Source of the DNA: Lonsdalea iberica
GTDB taxonomy: Bacteria > Pseudomonadota > Gammaproteobacteria > Enterobacterales > Enterobacteriaceae
NCBI RefSeq assembly: GCF_002111585.1
Contig: NZ_LUTP01000015.1
Span: 1 to 64,000, forward strand
Direction: 5' to 3'
Length of the DNA stretch: 64,000 nt
How positions within the stretch are numbered: position 1 is the stretch's first letter; every line of letters starts with the position of its first letter. The notes under the pieces were generated by a model, which was given only the letters and a program-made list of their open reading frames with translations, was not told the origin of the DNA and made no database searches. Below are positions 9,243-34,733 of this stretch, piece by piece. A program made the position numbers and the translations under genes.

Positions 9243-10214
9243 ATGAAAGAAGAAAAACACGGTGTGCTGTTGGTCAACCTGGGCACGCCTGATGCGCCCA
9301 CCCCCCAGGCGGTGAAGCGTTATCTGGCCGAGTTCCTCAGCGACAGGCGCGTTGTGGACGTGAACCCTTTGCTGTGGGCGTTGATCCTGCGAGGCGCTAT
9401 CCTGCCATTCCGCTCGCCGCGCGTGGCCAAGCTGTATCAGTCCGTATGGATGGAGGGCGGTTCCCCGCTGTTGGTCTTCAGCCGCCGTCAGGAAAAAGCG
9501 TTGGCTGAACGTCTGCCTAGCACGCCGGTGGCGTTGGGGATGAGTTACGGTTCCCCCAGTCTACGTTCGGCGTTGGATAGCCTGATGGCGCAAGGGGTGA
9601 CCTCTCTGACCGTCCTGCCGCTGTACCCGCAATACTCCTGTTCCACGACGGCCGCGGTGTGGGATGGCCTCGCTAACCTGATGAAATCCACTCGCCGGAT
9701 GCCGGGCATCCGCTTTATCCGTGACTATGCCGAACATCCCGCTTATATCGCGGCGCTGAAACATAGCGTAGAAGCCTCGTTTGCCAAGCACGGCGTGCCT
9801 GAGCGGTTGGTCATGTCATACCACGGTATTCCTCAGCGTTATGCTAATGAGGGCGATGATTATCCGCTTCGCTGTGCGGCCACGACGGCGGCGCTGACGG
9901 CGGCGTTGGGATTACCTCAGGACAAGGTGATGATGACCTTCCAGTCGCGTTTCGGACGTGAGCCTTGGCTGACGCCGTATACGGATGAAACCATGCAGGC
10001 ATTGGGCGCTCAGGGCGTGAAGGATATTCAAATCATGTGCCCCGGATTCGCCTCCGACTGTCTGGAAACGTTGGAGGAAATTCAGGGAGAAAACCAGGAG
10101 ATCTTCCTGCATGCGGGGGGGGAGCGGTTTAACTATATTCCTGCGCTCAACGACGACTCGTTGCATATCGACCTGCTAGCTCAGCTGGTCAGCGCTCCGG
10201 AGGATGTTGAATAG
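9243..10214 (+). CDS. hemH: Ferrochelatase
   Basis: Ferrochelatase inserts Fe2+ into protoporphyrin IX, the last step of heme synthesis, at the inner face of the membrane. The protein contains [22 protein letters not shown] at the N-terminus, the metal-site region [18 protein letters not shown] with the conserved His, and [17 protein letters not shown]. An ATG at 9228 is in frame, but the GAGG at 9230-9233 sits nine bases before the ATG at 9243, so I choose the latter (323 residues), which also fits the family start. E. coli has aes and gsk between hemH and ybaL; both are missing here, and hemH converges directly on ybaL. Confidence 0.97.
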
Positions 10215-19412: not shown

Positions 19413-21701
19413 TTAGATTTTGCAGGCGCCGCCCTCACAGCCATCATCCTGCGCGGCGACGTCCAGCAGGTCGTCCTGAGAGTCCTCGGCGCCGTCACGG
19501 GTATTTTGATAATAGAGCGTTTTAACGCCGAGCTTATAGGCTGTCAGCAAATCTTTCAGCAGCTGTTTCATCGGCACTTTGCCTGATGGGAAACGCGACG
19601 GATCGTAGTTGGTGTTGGACGAAATCGCCTGATCGACGAATTTCTGCATCAGTCCCACCAATTGCAGATAGCCATCATTGTTCGGCATTTCCCACAGCAG
19701 TTCGTACTGACCTTTCAGGCGCTCATATTCCGGCACGACCTGACGGAGAATCCCATCCTTCGACGCTTTCACGCTGATATGACCACGCGGCGGCTCGATG
19801 CCGTTGGTGGCGTTGGAAATCTGCGACGACGTTTCGGACGGCATCAGCGCGGACAGCGTGGAGTTACGCAGACCGTGGGTTTTGATGTCCTGGCGCAGCG
19901 TTTCCCAGTCGAAATGCAGCGGTTCGTTACTGATGTTGTCCAGATCGCGTTTGTAGGTATCGATCGGCAGCATGCCCTGTGAGTATGTGGTTTCATTGAA
20001 CCACGGGCAGGCGCCCTGTTCGCGCGCCAGCACGTTGGAGGCCTTCAACAGATAGTACTGAATGGCTTCAAAGGTGCGGTGCGTCAGATTATTGGCGCTG
20101 CCGTCGGAGTAACGGACGCCGTTTTTCGCCAGATAGTAGGCGAAGTTGATCACGCCAATGCCGAGAGTTCGACGTCCCATCGCGCCACGTTCCGCCGCGG
20201 GGATAGGGTAGTCCTGATAGTCCAGCAGCGCATCCAGTGCGCGTACGGCCAGTGTCGCCAGCTCTTCCAGATCGTCGAGGCTATCAATCGCGCCAAGGTT
20301 AAAGGCGGACAGCGTACACAGCGCGATTTCGCCGTTCTCGTCATTCACGTCGTTCAGCGGTTTGGTCGGCAGCGCGATTTCGAGACACAGGTTTGACTGG
20401 CGTACCGGCGCGATCTGCGGATCGAACGGGCTGTGGGTGTTGCAGTGATCGACATTCTGAATGTAAATACGGCCGGTGGACGCGCGCTCTTGCATCATTA
20501 GCGAGAACAGTTCGACCGCTTTGATACGCTGCTTGCGAATGTTGTCGTCCTGCTCGTACTTAACGTACAGACGTTCGAACTCTTCCTGATTGACGAAGAA
20601 GGCGTCGTACAGGCCGGGAACGTCGGACGGGCTAAACAGAGTGATGTCTTCACCCTTGAGCAGGCGCTGATACATCAGCTTGTTGAGCTGCACGCCGTAG
20701 TCGAGATGGCGAACACGGTTGCCTTCAACGCCACGGTTGTTTTTGAGTACCAGCAGGCTTTCGACTTCCAAATGCCATAGCGGGTAGAACAGCGTCGCCG
20801 CGCCGCCGCGAACGCCACCCTGAGAGCAGGACTTCACCGCGGTCTGGAAGTGTTTGTAGAACGGAACGCAGCCGGTATGGAACGCTTCGCCGCCGCGAAT
20901 CGGGCTGCCCAACGCACGGATGCGCCCGGCATTGATGCCGATGCCCGCACGCTGAGACACGTATTTCACGATAGCGCTGGAGGTGGCATTGATGGAATCC
21001 AGACTGTCGCCGCATTCGATCAGTACGCAGGAGCTGAACTGGCGGGTAGGAGTGCGGACGCCGGACATGATTGGGGTCGGCAGAGAAATCTTGAAAGATG
21101 ATACCGCATCATAGAAGCGTCTGACGTAATCCAGTCGCGTCTCACGGGGGTAGCCGGAAAACAGGCAGGCTGCCACCAGCATGTACAGGAACTGGGCGCT
21201 TTCATAGATCTCGCCGGTCACACGGTTCTGTACCAGATATTTGCCTTCCAGCTGTTTCACGGCGGCATACGAGAAGTTCATATCGCGCCAGTGATCGATG
21301 AAGTCGTTCATCTGGGCAAACTCTTCCGGCGTGTAGTCGTCAAGCAGATGGCGGTCATATTTGCCCATGTCGACCATTTTCACGACGTGGTCGTACAGCT
21401 TGGGCGGCTCGAACTGGCCATACGCTTTTTTGCGCAGATGGAAGATAGCCAGGCGGGCGGCCAGATATTGATAATCCGGGCTTTCTTTAGAGATCAGGTC
21501 TGCTGCGGCCTTGATGATGGTCTCATGAATGTCGGCGGTTTTGATGCCGTCGTAAAACTGGATATGGGAGCGCAGCTCAACCTGTGAAACCGACACATTG
21601 TGCAACCCTTCGGCGGCCCAAGTGATAACCCGGTGAATCTTATCCAGATTGATACGTTCTTTACTGCCATCGCGTTTGGTAACGAGCAGACTCTGGTTCA
21701 T
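19413..21701 (-). CDS. nrdA: Class Ia ribonucleotide reductase, alpha subunit
   Basis: NrdA reduces all four ribonucleoside diphosphates. The 762-residue protein has an N-terminal ATP-cone (about residues 5-95, LLVTKRDGSKERINLDKIHR), the catalytic barrel with SNLCLEIALPTKP (active-site Cys and Glu), and the C-terminal swinging cysteines at 755 and 760 in GCEGGACKI. The ATG at 21701 has no Shine-Dalgarno; the mRNA instead reads CTCCTCC just before it. NrdR boxes lie at 21753-21800. Confidence 0.98.
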   Translation of the reverse strand: MNQSLLVTKRDGSKERINLDKIHRVITWAAEGLHNVSVSQVELRSHIQFYDGIKTADIHETIIKAAADLISKESPDYQYLAARLAIFHLRKKAYGQFEPPKLYDHVVKMVDMGKYDRHLLDDYTPEEFAQMNDFIDHWRDMNFSYAAVKQLEGKYLVQNRVTGEIYESAQFLYMLVAACLFSGYPRETRLDYVRRFYDAVSSFKISLPTPIMSGVRTPTRQFSSCVLIECGDSLDSINATSSAIVKYVSQRAGIGINAGRIRALGSPIRGGEAFHTGCVPFYKHFQTAVKSCSQGGVRGGAATLFYPLWHLEVESLLVLKNNRGVEGNRVRHLDYGVQLNKLMYQRLLKGEDITLFSPSDVPGLYDAFFVNQEEFERLYVKYEQDDNIRKQRIKAVELFSLMMQERASTGRIYIQNVDHCNTHSPFDPQIAPVRQSNLCLEIALPTKPLNDVNDENGEIALCTLSAFNLGAIDSLDDLEELATLAVRALDALLDYQDYPIPAAERGAMGRRTLGIGVINFAYYLAKNGVRYSDGSANNLTHRTFEAIQYYLLKASNVLAREQGACPWFNETTYSQGMLPIDTYKRDLDNISNEPLHFDWETLRQDIKTHGLRNSTLSALMPSETSSQISNATNGIEPPRGHISVKASKDGILRQVVPEYERLKGQYELLWEMPNNDGYLQLVGLMQKFVDQAISSNTNYDPSRFPSGKVPMKQLLKDLLTAYKLGVKTLYYQNTRDGAEDSQDDLLDVAAQDDGCEGGACKI

Positions 21702-21752
21702 GTGGAGGAGTACCTATTTGAGTTCTTGGCAGCCCATCGCCTGCATTTTCGC

Positions 21753-21800
21753 ATGCGGAAAATAGTGTCTGACACATAAGGTAAACACTATATGTAGGGG
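21753..21800 (-). promoter_or_regulatory. Tandem NrdR boxes upstream of nrdA
   Basis: Two 16-base sites start 32 bases apart, about three helical turns: 21785-21800 (ACACTATATGTAGGGG) and 21753-21768 (ending AATAGTGT). They match the NrdR consensus acaCwAtATaTwGtgt at about 12 and 10 positions. Paired boxes at this spacing before nrdA are the known arrangement for the NrdR repressor. Confidence 0.75.
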
Positions 21801-22603
21801 GCTGGGTTGGTTTTGATAACAAGATAGTGAGAAATACATGTTAATGCAAGTAAGCGCATCGTGCAGAATTTGACCCGGACATTGAGATGGAATGGAGTGA
21901 AACCAGCCGCAATGCGGCTTTGTTTTATGTCAACCGCTTCCACAAAAAATAAAAAAAATTGATCGACCGCTGGATTCTTATTCGAACGGAAAAAACAACT
22001 TTTTGATCTGGTCCTGTGTTTGGTTGTTTGGCCGCCAGGAGACGCGCTTTTGTAAAGTGCTTCTTTTCCCTTCCGCTCCGCTCTTTGCTGTTTACCTGTT
22101 TCTGGCTTGCAGGAAAGTCTGTTTCCATGGCGATCGCTGGTCGTAAACGGGGGGCTGACGCTGTGGGGCATGGGGGACTTAACATGGGGCGCGTGAGCAA
22201 GATCCGCCGTGCAGGAAAATCAATGGCGCGCGTAGGGTGGCATTGTCTGGTTATTGTGCGGGAATGGTATTTGGTGAACCTGTCTTTATTAATGGAATGT
22301 ATAATAAATGTTTACATCTCGATGAGTGATTAAGAGATGGACTTTATTTTAAACGTTGATTTCTTGGTTTTGGTTGGGAGTAATAAATAAATAACCAAAT
22401 ACACGCTAGGTTATTTTTTATTCCAACAAAAAATAGAACTAAGTAATAATGGGTTGTTGTAATTATCTCGGTAAGAATAAGTTTGGGTCGTTTGTTTTAC
22501 TCATATCGCGTTACATTTATTACGCTATGTTTATTTTTTATTATTTCCTATTGGGTTAATGTTTAAATGGTTTTATTAAATCCATGAATAAGGAAAATTC
22601 AAT
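21801..22603. other. AT-rich intergenic island between nrdA and the small secreted protein gene
   Basis: About 800 bases without a convincing gene; in E. coli yfaL lies between nrdA and ubiG. Frames at 21788-22171, 21925-22200 and 22016-22333 lack ribosome-binding sites and family features. A terminator-like hairpin lies at 22389-22419: AAATAACC and GGTTATTT with a T-run. At 22472-22485, TAAGAATAAGTTTG matches the RcsAB consensus at 11 of 14 positions, about 120 bases before the 22604 start. Confidence 0.5.
22389..22419 (+). terminator. Intrinsic terminator-like hairpin in the nrdA-ubiG island
   Basis: AAATAACC (22389-22396) pairs with GGTTATTT (22409-22416) around a 12-base loop, followed by further T. 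It implies a transcript that ends here, upstream of the 22604 gene. Confidence 0.5.
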
Positions 22604-22879
22604 ATGCAATATAGAAAAGTCTCTATTTTACTGAGTTCCATTACTGGTTTGGTAATGTCTATGGCGTCTTTAAGTGCCTATTCCGGCACTGATGTTATTG
22701 ATTACGCGCCTGTGAATAACGATAGCCACGTCAGAGCGGCCGGCCATCAGCCTCATTGGGTGCTGGCGTCTAGTTCGGCAAGCAGCCGCAGCGCGAGTCC
22801 TTCGCAGGGCAGTACGAGCGGCAAATCAACCGGACGTAGTAGCAAAGGAAGTAATGACAATAGAAATGGTCGATTCTAA
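22604..22879 (+). CDS. Small secreted Ser/Gly-rich protein of unknown function
   Basis: I do not recognise this 91-residue protein. It starts MQYRKVSILLSSITGLVMSM and has a Sec-type signal peptide likely cleaved near LSA-YSG (about residue 25). A short segment TDVIDYAPVNNDSHVRAAGH follows, then a low-complexity Ser/Gly/Arg/Lys tail (about residues 55-91) with no cysteine. AAGGA lies 9-10 bases before the ATG, and a U-rich hairpin follows at 22956-22998, so it looks like a real monocistronic gene. The flanks are clearly more AT-rich than neighbouring genes, which suggests an acquired or fast-evolving locus. It could be a matrix- or cell-wall-binding peptide or a stress-induced periplasmic protein; neither is shown. 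Confidence 0.6.
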   Translation: MQYRKVSILLSSITGLVMSMASLSAYSGTDVIDYAPVNNDSHVRAAGHQPHWVLASSSASSRSASPSQGSTSGKSTGRSSKGSNDNRNGRF

Positions 22880-22955
22880 AAGAAGCAGGCTAATTTTCCT
22901 GAAGGGATAATTACCTTTCCGGAACCGCTCGCCGTATTCAATAATCCTCTGCGTT

Positions 22956-22998
22956 AAAAACCATTGGTCATAGCTACGCTATTATGGGAATGGTTTTT
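22956..22998 (+). terminator. Terminator of the small secreted protein gene
   Basis: AAAAACCATT (22956-22965) pairs with AATGGTTTTT (22989-22998), so the U-rich tail is part of the stem. It lies about 75 bases after the stop codon. Confidence 0.6.
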
Positions 22999-23064
22999 GT
23001 GCATATGGATTAATTTTAGTGGTTACCTAAGGGGTACCCATTTGTTATGGCGGTAGCGATGTAC

Positions 23065-23090
23065 AGGGGCGAATTTTTCGCCCCTATATT
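23065..23090. terminator. Hairpin downstream of the small secreted protein locus
   Basis: AGGGGCGAA (23065-23073) and TTCGCCCCT (23077-23085) form a perfect 9-bp stem with a TTT loop, followed by ATATTTT on the plus strand. Confidence 0.6.
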
Positions 23091-23128
23091 TTAAGGGGAA
23101 CGGGTGCGGTATTAAATAAAAAACTTTT

Positions 23129-23142
23129 TAGGAATAATCTGG
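23129..23142 (+). promoter_or_regulatory. Candidate RcsAB box
   Basis: TAGGAATAATCTGG fits every position of the published RcsAB-box consensus TRVGAAWAWTSYGR. By my rough estimate from uniform base frequencies about 0.1 such matches are expected in 64 kb. The regulated gene is not obvious, because the next gene on the plus strand is gyrA and ubiG points the other way. Confidence 0.4.
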
Positions 23143-23482
23143 AAGAAATAATGAGGATATCGAAAATACTTCTACTGCATTTAGGTATTAAAAATAGTGA
23201 ATATTGAAGGCGGCATCATATTCATCTGCCGTGGACAGACATCAAGTTAGCGATCAAGTTATCGATAGTTTTGCCTTGTCCTCGACTGAATGATGGCGCC
23301 ACCATCAGTCAACGAGGAGGAAGGGCAGTGGTAGCGGCAAGTTGGAAAGCAGTACTCAGGCAAGAACAGGAGGGACGGCGTGGTTTTCCCCCCAATCATG
23401 CCGTCCTCCCGAATCGATGATGAGAGCGTATGCGATGCGGAAGGAACAAGGAGAGCTCAAACGCCTGGCCTGGCTCGTCAGT

Positions 23483-24214
23483 CTATTCGGCGTTTTCACG
23501 CTGTGTATGCAGCATATAGTTAACGTCTACACTCCCGCCCAGTCTGAATGTGTCGAACAGCGGATTATAGTGCAGCCCAGTGATGTGCTTTTCCCGCAAT
23601 GGCGTCGAATCAAGCCATCCCAGCAGTTCGGCAGGGCGTATAAACTTCTTGATGTCGTGCGTTCCTCGCGGCACCATCTTCGCGACATATTCGGCACCCA
23701 CGATCATCATCAGCCACGCTTTAGCGTTACGGTTAATCGTGGAGAAAAATACCTGGCCTCCAGGCCTAACCAAACGGGCGCAGGCTTCGACTATGGAGCG
23801 CGGGTCGGGCACGTGTTCGAGCATTTCCATGCAGGTCACCACGTCGTATTCTCCAGCGTGAGCCTCGGCATGGGCTTCTACGGTTTCCTGAACGTAGTGC
23901 ACGTCGACCCCGCTTTCCAGAGCATGAAGGCGCGCAACCTGCAAAGGTTCGCCCCCCATATCCAGACCCGTGACCATGGCCCCTTCGCGCGCCATGCTTT
24001 CGGACAAGATACCGCCCCCGCAGCCGACATCCAGGATTTTCTTGCCGTACAGACCTTCGGCGTGGCGGGAGATATATCCCAAACGCAGCGGATTAATGCG
24101 GTGTAGGGGTTTGAATTCGCCTTCCAGGTCCCACCAGCGTGAGGCGACGGCTTCGAATTTGGCGATCTCGTCGTGGTCGACGTTTTGGGTATGGGAATCA
24201 GCCTTCATGTGCAT
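23483..24214 (-). CDS. ubiG: UbiG, ubiquinone O-methyltransferase
   Basis: UbiG carries out both O-methylations of ubiquinone synthesis with S-adenosylmethionine. The protein has motif [19 protein letters not shown], the acidic motif [18 protein letters not shown] and post-motif [15 protein letters not shown]. The frame opens at 24232; ATG at 24214 has AAGG six bases upstream, giving 243 residues. The conserved block [28 protein letters not shown] starts near residue 11. It is divergent from gyrA, as in E. coli. A 254-codon frame on the opposite strand is a shadow. Confidence 0.97.
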
Positions 24215-33551: not shown

Positions 33552-34733
33552 TCAATCTCCAGACGAACGGATGATGGCGCGAGAGCTGGCGCAGACGGCC
33601 AGCAACAACATAACGATCACGCCCAGCGCCAGCGACAGGCTGCTGACCTGGGCGACAAATCCTAACAGCGTCGGACCAAGCAGAGAACCGGCATAGCCCA
33701 TCGTGGTAATGGATGCGAGAGCCAGATGCGGCGGCATCATCGTCTGATTACCGGCGGTAGTAAACAGGATGGGCACGACGTTGGCCGCGCCAAGACCGAC
33801 TAACGCAAAGCCGCCGATGGCGGTGAAGGGATTATCGATGGTAATCGTCATCAGCAGTCCCGCCGCGGCGCATAGGCTTCCGCCGGCGATGACGGCAAAG
33901 CGGCCAAGACGGTTGACCACCCGATCGCCATAGAGCCGCCCCAGCGTCATCGTAATGGAAAAGGCGGCGAAGCCGATACCCGCCTGACGCGCATCGATGC
34001 CGCGAAATGCAGTCAGATACAGCGCGCCCCAGTCCAGAACGGCGCCCTCAGTCAGAAACATGATGAAGCACAGAATGCCGATGAACAGCACCCATCCTCG
34101 AGGTATCGCCAGTAAAGGCCCCCCGCCGGCCCGCGACGTGGCGCGCACCATATGGCGCTGGGACCAGAACAGCGGGAGCCAGATCAGTAACGCCATCGCC
34201 ACTGTCGCCAGCAAGGGCGACAGTCCTAGCCACAGCAGCAGGCTGATGCAGCCAGCGCCGACGATCCCGCCAACGCTATAAAAGCCGTGAAAGCTGGACA
34301 TCAGGGCCCGTTGACAGGCGCGCTCCACCTCAACGGCCTGGACGTTGATGGCGACATCCATCAATCCCAGCATCGCGCCCAGCAAAGCCAGCATCAGCGC
34401 CATCACCGGAAACGTTTCAGGCAAAGTTAATATCGGCAGCAGCACGCACAGCGCCGTGCCGGAGGCGAAAATGACCCGTCGGCAGCTAAACCGGGCCGTC
34501 AGAAACCCGGCCATCGGCATGGAGATGAGCGAGCCGATGCCGATGCACAATAGCAGCACGCCGAGCGTGGCGTCGTTGATATCCAGCCGATGCTTGGTAT
34601 AAGGCACTAGCGGCGCCCAACAGGATATGGCCGTGCCGGAGATCAAAAAACCAATTCGTGTGGCGACCTGAACGGCTTTATCCGCCAGGGGAGAATCGAG
34701 GGAACAGGGCTTGGTGCCGACGGTTGAATGCAT
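33552..34733 (-). CDS. MFS transporter upstream of rcsD
   Basis: This 393-residue protein has 12 hydrophobic segments and MFS features such as FLTARFSCRRVIF after segment 2 (the loop-2 motif region) and a conserved LLGAMLGLMDVAINVQAVEVERA in segment 4. It resembles the YbjJ/fucose-permease-like branch of the superfamily; the substrate is unknown. Its stop codon overlaps a possible TTG start of rcsD and lies only five bases before the ATG, so MFS-rcsD-rcsB look like one operon. In E. coli no transporter lies there. The ATG at 34733 has no obvious ribosome-binding site. Confidence 0.85.
   Translation of the reverse strand: MHSTVGTKPCSLDSPLADKAVQVATRIGFLISGTAISCWAPLVPYTKHRLDINDATLGVLLLCIGIGSLISMPMAGFLTARFSCRRVIFASGTALCVLLPILTLPETFPVMALMLALLGAMLGLMDVAINVQAVEVERACQRALMSSFHGFYSVGGIVGAGCISLLLWLGLSPLLATVAMALLIWLPLFWSQRHMVRATSRAGGGPLLAIPRGWVLFIGILCFIMFLTEGAVLDWGALYLTAFRGIDARQAGIGFAAFSITMTLGRLYGDRVVNRLGRFAVIAGGSLCAAAGLLMTITIDNPFTAIGGFALVGLGAANVVPILFTTAGNQTMMPPHLALASITTMGYAGSLLGPTLLGFVAQVSSLSLALGVIVMLLLAVCASSRAIIRSSGD

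What the first reader, a model, noticed from the sequence alone, without database searches (positions are those of the whole stretch)
22604..22879. Orphan small secreted Ser/Gly-rich protein in an AT-rich island between nrdA and ubiG
A 91-codon gene with a clear signal peptide, a good ribosome-binding site and its own terminator stands where E. coli has yfaL. I recognise no family. Its flanks are AT-rich compared with the conserved genes around it, and an 11-of-14 RcsAB-like match lies about 120 bases upstream, with the rcs genes only a few kb away.
Basis: partly seen in the sequence, partly recalled or inferred. Interest (0 to 1): 0.55.

Follow-up and report, generated by a model that had tools for sequence, protein, structure and literature searches.

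The report
Lonsdalea-only small exported protein gene
A tree-infecting bacterial genus carries, between two housekeeping genes, a real small gene for an apparently exported, unstructured protein found nowhere else we looked; what it does is unknown, and the suggested link to the Rcs stress system does not hold up at this gene.

Summary
The 91-codon ORF at 22604-22879 is real. It lies at the same nrdA-ubiG position in all five species genomes held for its genus, Lonsdalea, and is intact in four; the fifth, a draft, has a single-base frame break, and that draft also breaks the frame of ubiG. Coding evidence is strong: pooled pN/pS 0.21, column-shuffle z 6.5. No relative was found outside the genus. 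The product reads as a Sec signal peptide plus about 65 basic, Ser/Gly-rich residues that AlphaFold2 leaves unfolded. The roughly 100 bases before the start codon diverge less (8%) than the ORF (17%) or the neutral flank (40%). The Rcs part of the finding fails: the best upstream match is 9 of 14, not 11, it is not conserved at the place indicated, and 92% of simulated sequences reach it, while the genus's own rprA boxes score 11-12 of 14 and are conserved. A conserved 11-of-14 box does exist, but 250 bases downstream of the ORF, in a separate conserved block (23115-23420). Mechanism is inferred: an exported, disordered, cationic protein acting at the cell surface. A sound but modest orphan-gene finding.

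The parts
22604..22879 (+). ORF of 91 aa, small exported protein, Lonsdalea-restricted
22604..22678 (+). predicted Sec signal peptide, residues 1-25 (cleavage after A25, or after S27); read by eye, no predictor run
   Evidence: sequence; only helix in AlphaFold2 model is residues 3-23
22679..22876 (+). mature part, 66 aa, 24% Ser, 11% Gly, pI about 10, predicted unstructured; C-terminal NRNGRF invariant in the 4 intact genomes
22503..22603 (+). conserved promoter/5' leader block, 7.9% mean pairwise divergence in five genomes; contains RBS AAGGAAAA; no clear sigma-70 promoter
23065..23085 (+). hairpin with poor T-run, possible 3' end of the transcript; folds well in 4 of 5 genomes
23115..23420 (.). 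second conserved block, no convincing coding or RNA-structure signal, found only in Lonsdalea; probably a separate unit
23129..23142 (-). RcsAB-box-like CCAGATTATTCCTA, 11 of 14, identical in all five genomes, downstream of the ORF

Best explanation
A genuine single-gene unit restricted to the genus Lonsdalea. Shown: the reading frame and its upstream region are conserved at one locus in the five genus genomes held, and the protein is under purifying selection. Inferred from sequence: the protein leaves the cytoplasm by the Sec route and is cut after residue 25 or 27. Inferred, and only a best guess: the mature chain of about 65 residues is a disordered cationic Ser/Gly-rich protein that works in the periplasm or at the cell surface by binding polyanionic material (LPS, exopolysaccharide or peptidoglycan), as a lineage-specific envelope or matrix accessory rather than as an enzyme or an arms-race factor. 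My probabilities: real protein-coding gene 0.97; exported 0.9; envelope/surface accessory role as described 0.35.
For: Found in 5 of 5 genus genomes at the same place. The other three intact proteins are 79-88% identical to the window's, with one in-frame codon insertion. Pairwise dN/dS 0.09-0.23; pooled pN/pS 0.21; column-shuffle z 6.5 in the annotated frame. Control: four other open frames of the window between 21791 and 22330 carry stops in three or four of the other genomes and show no coding signal, and the ORF carries none. Upstream block divergence 0.079 against 0.400 in the neutral stretch 22051-22440. No other frame with a clear coding signal in the gap and low dN/dS in the mature part (0.09-0.26) argue against an operon partner and against diversifying selection. 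pI about 10, GRAVY -1.0; AlphaFold2 mean pLDDT 52.9, no secondary structure after residue 23.
Against: No expression, secretion or phenotype data. Signal peptide judged by eye. One of five genomes (L. britannica draft) has a frame break, which I attribute to the draft because ubiG is broken there too, but it could be real. One minus-strand frame over the ORF also reaches z 4.35; its third codon positions coincide with those of the ORF, so I read it as a mirror, as also seen in the antisense frames of ubiG (z 2.40 and 1.66). A four-sequence alignment makes the disorder prediction weak. Nothing in the data points directly to a ligand or a compartment.
Confidence: 0.4

Rival explanations
1. A fully secreted protein that acts on the plant host or on neighbouring microbes rather than on the bacterium's own envelope.
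For: Apparent signal peptide and small basic disordered mature part; members of the genus are oak and poplar pathogens (abstracts of PMC10491777, PMC6856664 and PMC7914447); genus-only distribution.
Against: Low dN/dS in the mature part across the genus, no diversification, no cysteines; no neighbouring gene with coding support that could be an immunity or export gene and no GG leader for a microcin-type peptide.
Confidence: 0.3
2. The ORF is the surviving 5' end of an ancestral yfaL-type autotransporter gene that held this position, reused as a small exported protein.
For: yfaL occupies the same gap in the same orientation in E. coli, and 1 of 19 other same-family genera looked at has a 1271-codon ORF there.
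Against: At E up to 1, no blastn or tblastx match of the ORF to the E. coli yfaL locus or to that large ORF; the only significant similarity is the nrdA promoter, plus a weak 17-residue tblastx hit (E 0.009) at about 22086-22136, outside the ORF; N-termini align only at chance level (best E 0.19).
Confidence: 0.05
3. A direct member of the Rcs regulon, switched by RcsAB from the upstream site the first reader saw.
For: rcs genes nearby. Three overlapping or separate 9-of-14 matches upstream keep that score in all five genomes (22526, 22589, 22590).
Against: Best upstream score 9 of 14; at 22472, the match nearest the place indicated, the other four genomes score 6-8; 92% of 300 Markov simulations of the block reach 9. 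Two of the three conserved 9-of-14 matches lie over the ribosome-binding site. In the same five genomes the rprA box scores 11-12 of 14 and is conserved. Weak or indirect control is not excluded.
Confidence: 0.07
4. A chance open frame; the conservation reflects a regulatory RNA or DNA element, not a protein.
For: ORF length is not unusual (18% of simulations); the first 13 codons have low synonymous divergence (pS 0.17 against 0.25-0.58 in later blocks), so a nucleotide-level constraint overlaps the start.
Against: Codon-level conservation over the whole frame, pN/pS 0.21, z 6.5; the last 39 codons are conserved at amino-acid level (pN 0.07-0.12) while synonymous divergence is 0.52-0.58.
Confidence: 0.03

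Closest known systems
Taxonomically restricted (orphan) small exported proteins of bacteria
   Same: Short, apparent signal peptide, low complexity, one genus, purifying selection, intergenic position between conserved genes.
   Different: Nothing known about this one; strong conservation of its upstream region.
YfaL/EhaC AIDA-type autotransporter (E. coli, same locus)
   Same: Same gap between nrdA and ubiG, same orientation.
   Different: No sequence similarity of the ORF; 91 aa against a far larger protein with passenger and barrel.
RprA, Rcs-activated small RNA
   Same: Only for the separate downstream block: an RcsAB-like box in the same orientation, 24 rather than 23 bases before a TACT-type -10 (spacing counted by eye).
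   Different: An rprA match lies elsewhere in all five genomes; block 2 reaches no Rfam gathering score and shows no compensatory pairs.
Class II microcins (Ser/Gly-rich, enterobacterial; recalled)
   Same: Small, Ser/Gly-rich C-terminal part.
   Different: No double-glycine leader, no neighbouring gene with coding support.

Membership tests
Protein-coding gene under purifying selection | Amino-acid sequence conserved beyond nucleotide level, indels in frame | tested here: met
   pN/pS 0.21; z 6.5; one in-frame codon insertion among the four intact genomes; one draft genome frame-broken
Sec-exported protein | n-, h- and c-regions with acceptable cleavage site | tested here: inconclusive
   Read by eye from MQYRK / VSILLSSITGLVMSMA / SLSA; helix 3-23 in AlphaFold2; no signal-peptide predictor available
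RcsAB regulon (direct, upstream site) | RcsAB box near consensus and conserved, as at rprA | tested here: not met
   Best 9 of 14 upstream; at the place indicated not conserved; rprA control 12 of 14 in four genomes and 11 in one
YfaL/AIDA autotransporter remnant | Sequence similarity to YfaL signal peptide, passenger or barrel | tested here: not met
Class II microcin/bacteriocin | Double-glycine leader | tested here: not met
   No GG in the first 40 residues
Class II microcin/bacteriocin | Adjacent immunity and export genes | tested here: not met
   No other frame with a clear coding signal in the nrdA-ubiG gap; neighbours are nrdA and ubiG. Genes elsewhere in the genome were not searched for
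Any described protein family | Match in Pfam, NCBIfam or PHROGs | tested here: not met
   0 families at E up to 10 in each
Genus-restricted orphan | No relative outside the genus | tested here: met
   Only Lonsdalea at E below 0.001 among 295 same-family and 394 same-order genomes (overlapping samples); 8 weak rows at 0.001-0.009, 5 inspected and judged chance, 2 with stops inside the match, 1 not looked at. A pattern scan of genome contigs found 3 relatives, all titled Lonsdalea. No match in plasmids, phages or viral contigs

The most novel reading that the evidence does not exclude
The extra DNA between nrdA and ubiG is a Lonsdalea-specific module of two units: an exported cationic protein, and beside it an Rcs-activated transcript running from about 23176 on the + strand toward and antisense to ubiG, possibly with a very short frame of its own. 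Envelope stress or plant contact sensed by Rcs would act through the second unit, not the first, and the exported protein would modify the bacterial surface or its exopolysaccharide matrix in bark.
Probability: 0.08. Interest if true: 0.5.

Novelty: new member of a known kind. Interest (0 to 1): 0.3.

Why it matters
It adds a well-supported, genus-restricted exported protein gene to a genus of tree pathogens, and it marks a compact target for deletion and localisation work. It also shows that an Rcs link should be looked for in the neighbouring conserved block, not at this gene.

Tried and rejected
Paralogues in the own genome: none at E up to 10. Copies of the upstream block elsewhere in the genus: only short hits at E 0.2 or worse. 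Relatives in phages, plasmids (protein, and DNA 22440-23482 for plasmids), viral contigs: none. Solved structures: best E 0.22, a plant receptor kinase over residues 26-78, taken as chance. Fold search not done because the model has mean pLDDT 53. Insertion boundaries: repeats in the gap are short, no pair flanks the extra DNA convincingly. Rfam with a loose threshold on 21700-23500: only sraA at E 1.2 over the hairpin on the minus strand (23 bits, gathering score 56) and H19_2 at E 4. Upstream regulator guesses from recalled half-sites (CpxR, CRP, FNR, PhoP, KdgR, HrpL): no assignment; 14% of 300 simulations of the block reach the observed PhoP score and 83% the CpxR score; the others had no such control.

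Second block as a protein gene: the frame at 23328-23420 has a strong RBS, conserved start and stop, in-frame indels and is open in all five genomes, but z 1.04, p 0.15, pN/pS 0.75, and z 1.32, p 0.10 for its longer version from 23271: unproven. The frame from 23417 reached p 0.016 over 21 codons, uncorrected for the many frames tried: unresolved. Second block as a structured RNA: no pair with compensatory change on either strand; one of the five sequences in alignment A4 lacks about the first 40 bases. Alignment A2 used one genome twice and A3 had one sequence in the wrong orientation; neither was used. The first dN/dS run on the second block used a frame off by two bases (smORF2 rows) and was replaced. 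One search ended with an error after its main results were printed; the composition part was rerun.

Papers: I saw the listing for Lonsdalea (122 papers, 40 listed), find-passages in PMC7914447, PMC6856664, PMC10491777 and PMC12388358, and two further listings; no paper was read whole. None of the passages seen mentions this locus. In the held library no paper holds both Lonsdalea and RcsB.

Full report
What is there. The ORF at 22604-22879 (+) encodes 91 residues and stands in a 1781-base gap between nrdA (divergent) and ubiG (convergent). Length alone proves nothing: 18% of 1000 first-order Markov simulations of 22010-23482 have an ATG ORF as long.

Who has it. The window lies in an assembly of 3.78 Mb in 133 contigs; its genus group has five species genomes. 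A DNA search with the gap matched 5 of 5 genus genomes. The protein is intact in 4 of 5. In the L. britannica draft the frame is broken once inside the ORF; that draft also breaks the frame of ubiG, whose match stops at residue 200 of 242, so a draft error is the simpler reading, not a proven one.

Who lacks it. Of 60 relatives searched with the protein, only the 5 genus members matched. A pattern scan of genome contigs (84,980 species genomes) confirmed 3 of 145 candidate stretches, all titled Lonsdalea; it finds close relatives only. With the four-sequence profile, 4 of 295 same-family genomes matched at E below 1e-50, all Lonsdalea; the frame-broken G004 is not among the rows shown with a match; four others lay at 0.002-0.008. 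Of these I inspected two: an antisense frame, and an ORF matched at its signal-peptide region and followed by a transposase-like frame; the other two have stops inside the match. Of 394 same-order genomes only the own genome matched strongly, and four lay at 0.001-0.009; three were inspected and judged chance, one was not looked at. The two samples overlap. No Pfam, NCBIfam or PHROGs family, no plasmid, phage or viral-contig relative, no paralogue.

Synteny. I fetched 19 of the 43 non-Lonsdalea genomes with a ubiG match, each from a different genus of the same family. In 18 of 19 the gap, measured from the nrdA start to the last aligned ubiG residue, is 348-709 bases with no frame over 66 codons among those listed; in one it holds a 1271-codon ORF. 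None of the 19 genomes matched the protein. In an E. coli genome the gap holds yfaL in the same orientation. I found no similarity between the ORF and yfaL or that large ORF. At E 0.01 the Lonsdalea gap shares only the nrdA-proximal 21759-21994 with the other genera.

Is it a protein gene. Pairwise dN/dS among the four intact copies is 0.09-0.23, dS 0.50-0.76. Pooled pN/pS is 0.21. A column-shuffle test on five genomes gives z 6.5 in the annotated frame and negative z in the other two + frames; one minus frame reaches z 4.35, whose third codon positions coincide with those of the ORF, and I read it as a mirror. As controls, the ubiG 3' end gives z 3.0 in its true frame and 2.40 and 1.66 in antisense frames, so antisense signals of this test must be read with care. 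Four other open frames of the window in 21791-22330 show no signal and carry stops in three or four of the other four genomes. Mean pairwise divergence falls from 0.400 in 22051-22440 to 0.253 in 22441-22502 and 0.079 in 22503-22603, is 0.168 in the ORF and 0.358 after it. Synonymous divergence is low in the first 13 codons (0.17) and 0.41-0.58 later, except codons 40-52 at 0.25, so the start carries an extra nucleotide-level constraint.

What the protein looks like. The N-terminus reads as a Sec signal peptide; this is by eye. The mature part has 24% Ser, 11% Gly, pI about 10 and no Cys. AlphaFold2 from four sequences gives mean pLDDT 52.9 and only the signal-peptide helix. The C-terminal NRNGRF and the central GHQP.WV are invariant in the intact copies.

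Rcs. Against TAAGAATATTCCTA (printed in PMC12388358, passage seen) the best match upstream of the ORF is 9 of 14; at 22472, nearest the place indicated, the other four genomes score 6-8, and 92% of 300 Markov simulations of the block reach 9. As a positive control I located rprA in the five genomes (two above and three below the Rfam cut-off) and found its box at 12 of 14 in four and 11 of 14 in one, in conserved sequence. So genuine Rcs boxes in this genus are recognisable, and the ORF lacks one. Matches of 9 of 14 at 22526, 22589 and 22590 keep that score in all five genomes, so weak control cannot be excluded.

The second block. 23115-23420 is conserved in all five genomes (mean divergence 0.135 over 23125-23420). 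A search with 23115-23482 found it in none of the other 55 of 60 genomes apart from one 23-base match. It holds an 11-of-14 Rcs-like box at 23129-23142, identical in five of five (3.8% of 1000 simulations of the block reach 11), in the same orientation and nearly the same distance from a TACT-type -10 as in rprA (spacing counted by eye). The window as a whole holds one other 11-of-14 match, at 10130. The block shows no significant coding signal, though one short frame stays open in all five, no compensatory base pairs, no Rfam family at gathering score and no terminator-like site on + before ubiG (the first lies at 24169). I treat it as a separate, unexplained feature.

Verdict. Ordinary in kind, well supported in fact: a genus-restricted exported small protein gene of unknown role. 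My working mechanism, surface or matrix binding by a disordered cationic chain, is an inference from composition, at about 0.35.

Noticed in passing
window 23115-23420: Lonsdalea-only conserved block between the ORF's hairpin and ubiG, with a conserved 11-of-14 Rcs-like box placed as in rprA; possible Rcs-activated transcript on the + strand.
   Followed up: partly
window 23328-23420 and 23417-23482: Two small + frames next to ubiG: the first with a strong RBS, in-frame indels and open in all five genomes but no significant coding signal, the second weakly significant (p 0.016, uncorrected).
   Followed up: partly
L020 (L. britannica draft), ORF and ubiG: Single-base frame breaks in both the ORF and ubiG of the same draft, suggesting base-level errors in that assembly.
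   Followed up: partly
L074 (G013), between nrdA and ubiG: A 1271-codon ORF at the position of E. coli yfaL, in a genus other than Lonsdalea; its family was not determined because the scan failed on coordinates.
   Followed up: no
window 33552-34733, minus strand: MFS transporter gene (Pfam MFS_1) whose 3' end overlaps the start of rcsD by a few bases; no NCBIfam match at 1e-10.
   Followed up: no
window 21944-21994: Conserved stretch upstream of nrdA partly shared with other genera (AAAAATTGATCGA..GCTG), beyond the first nrdA-proximal boxes; not explained.
   Followed up: no
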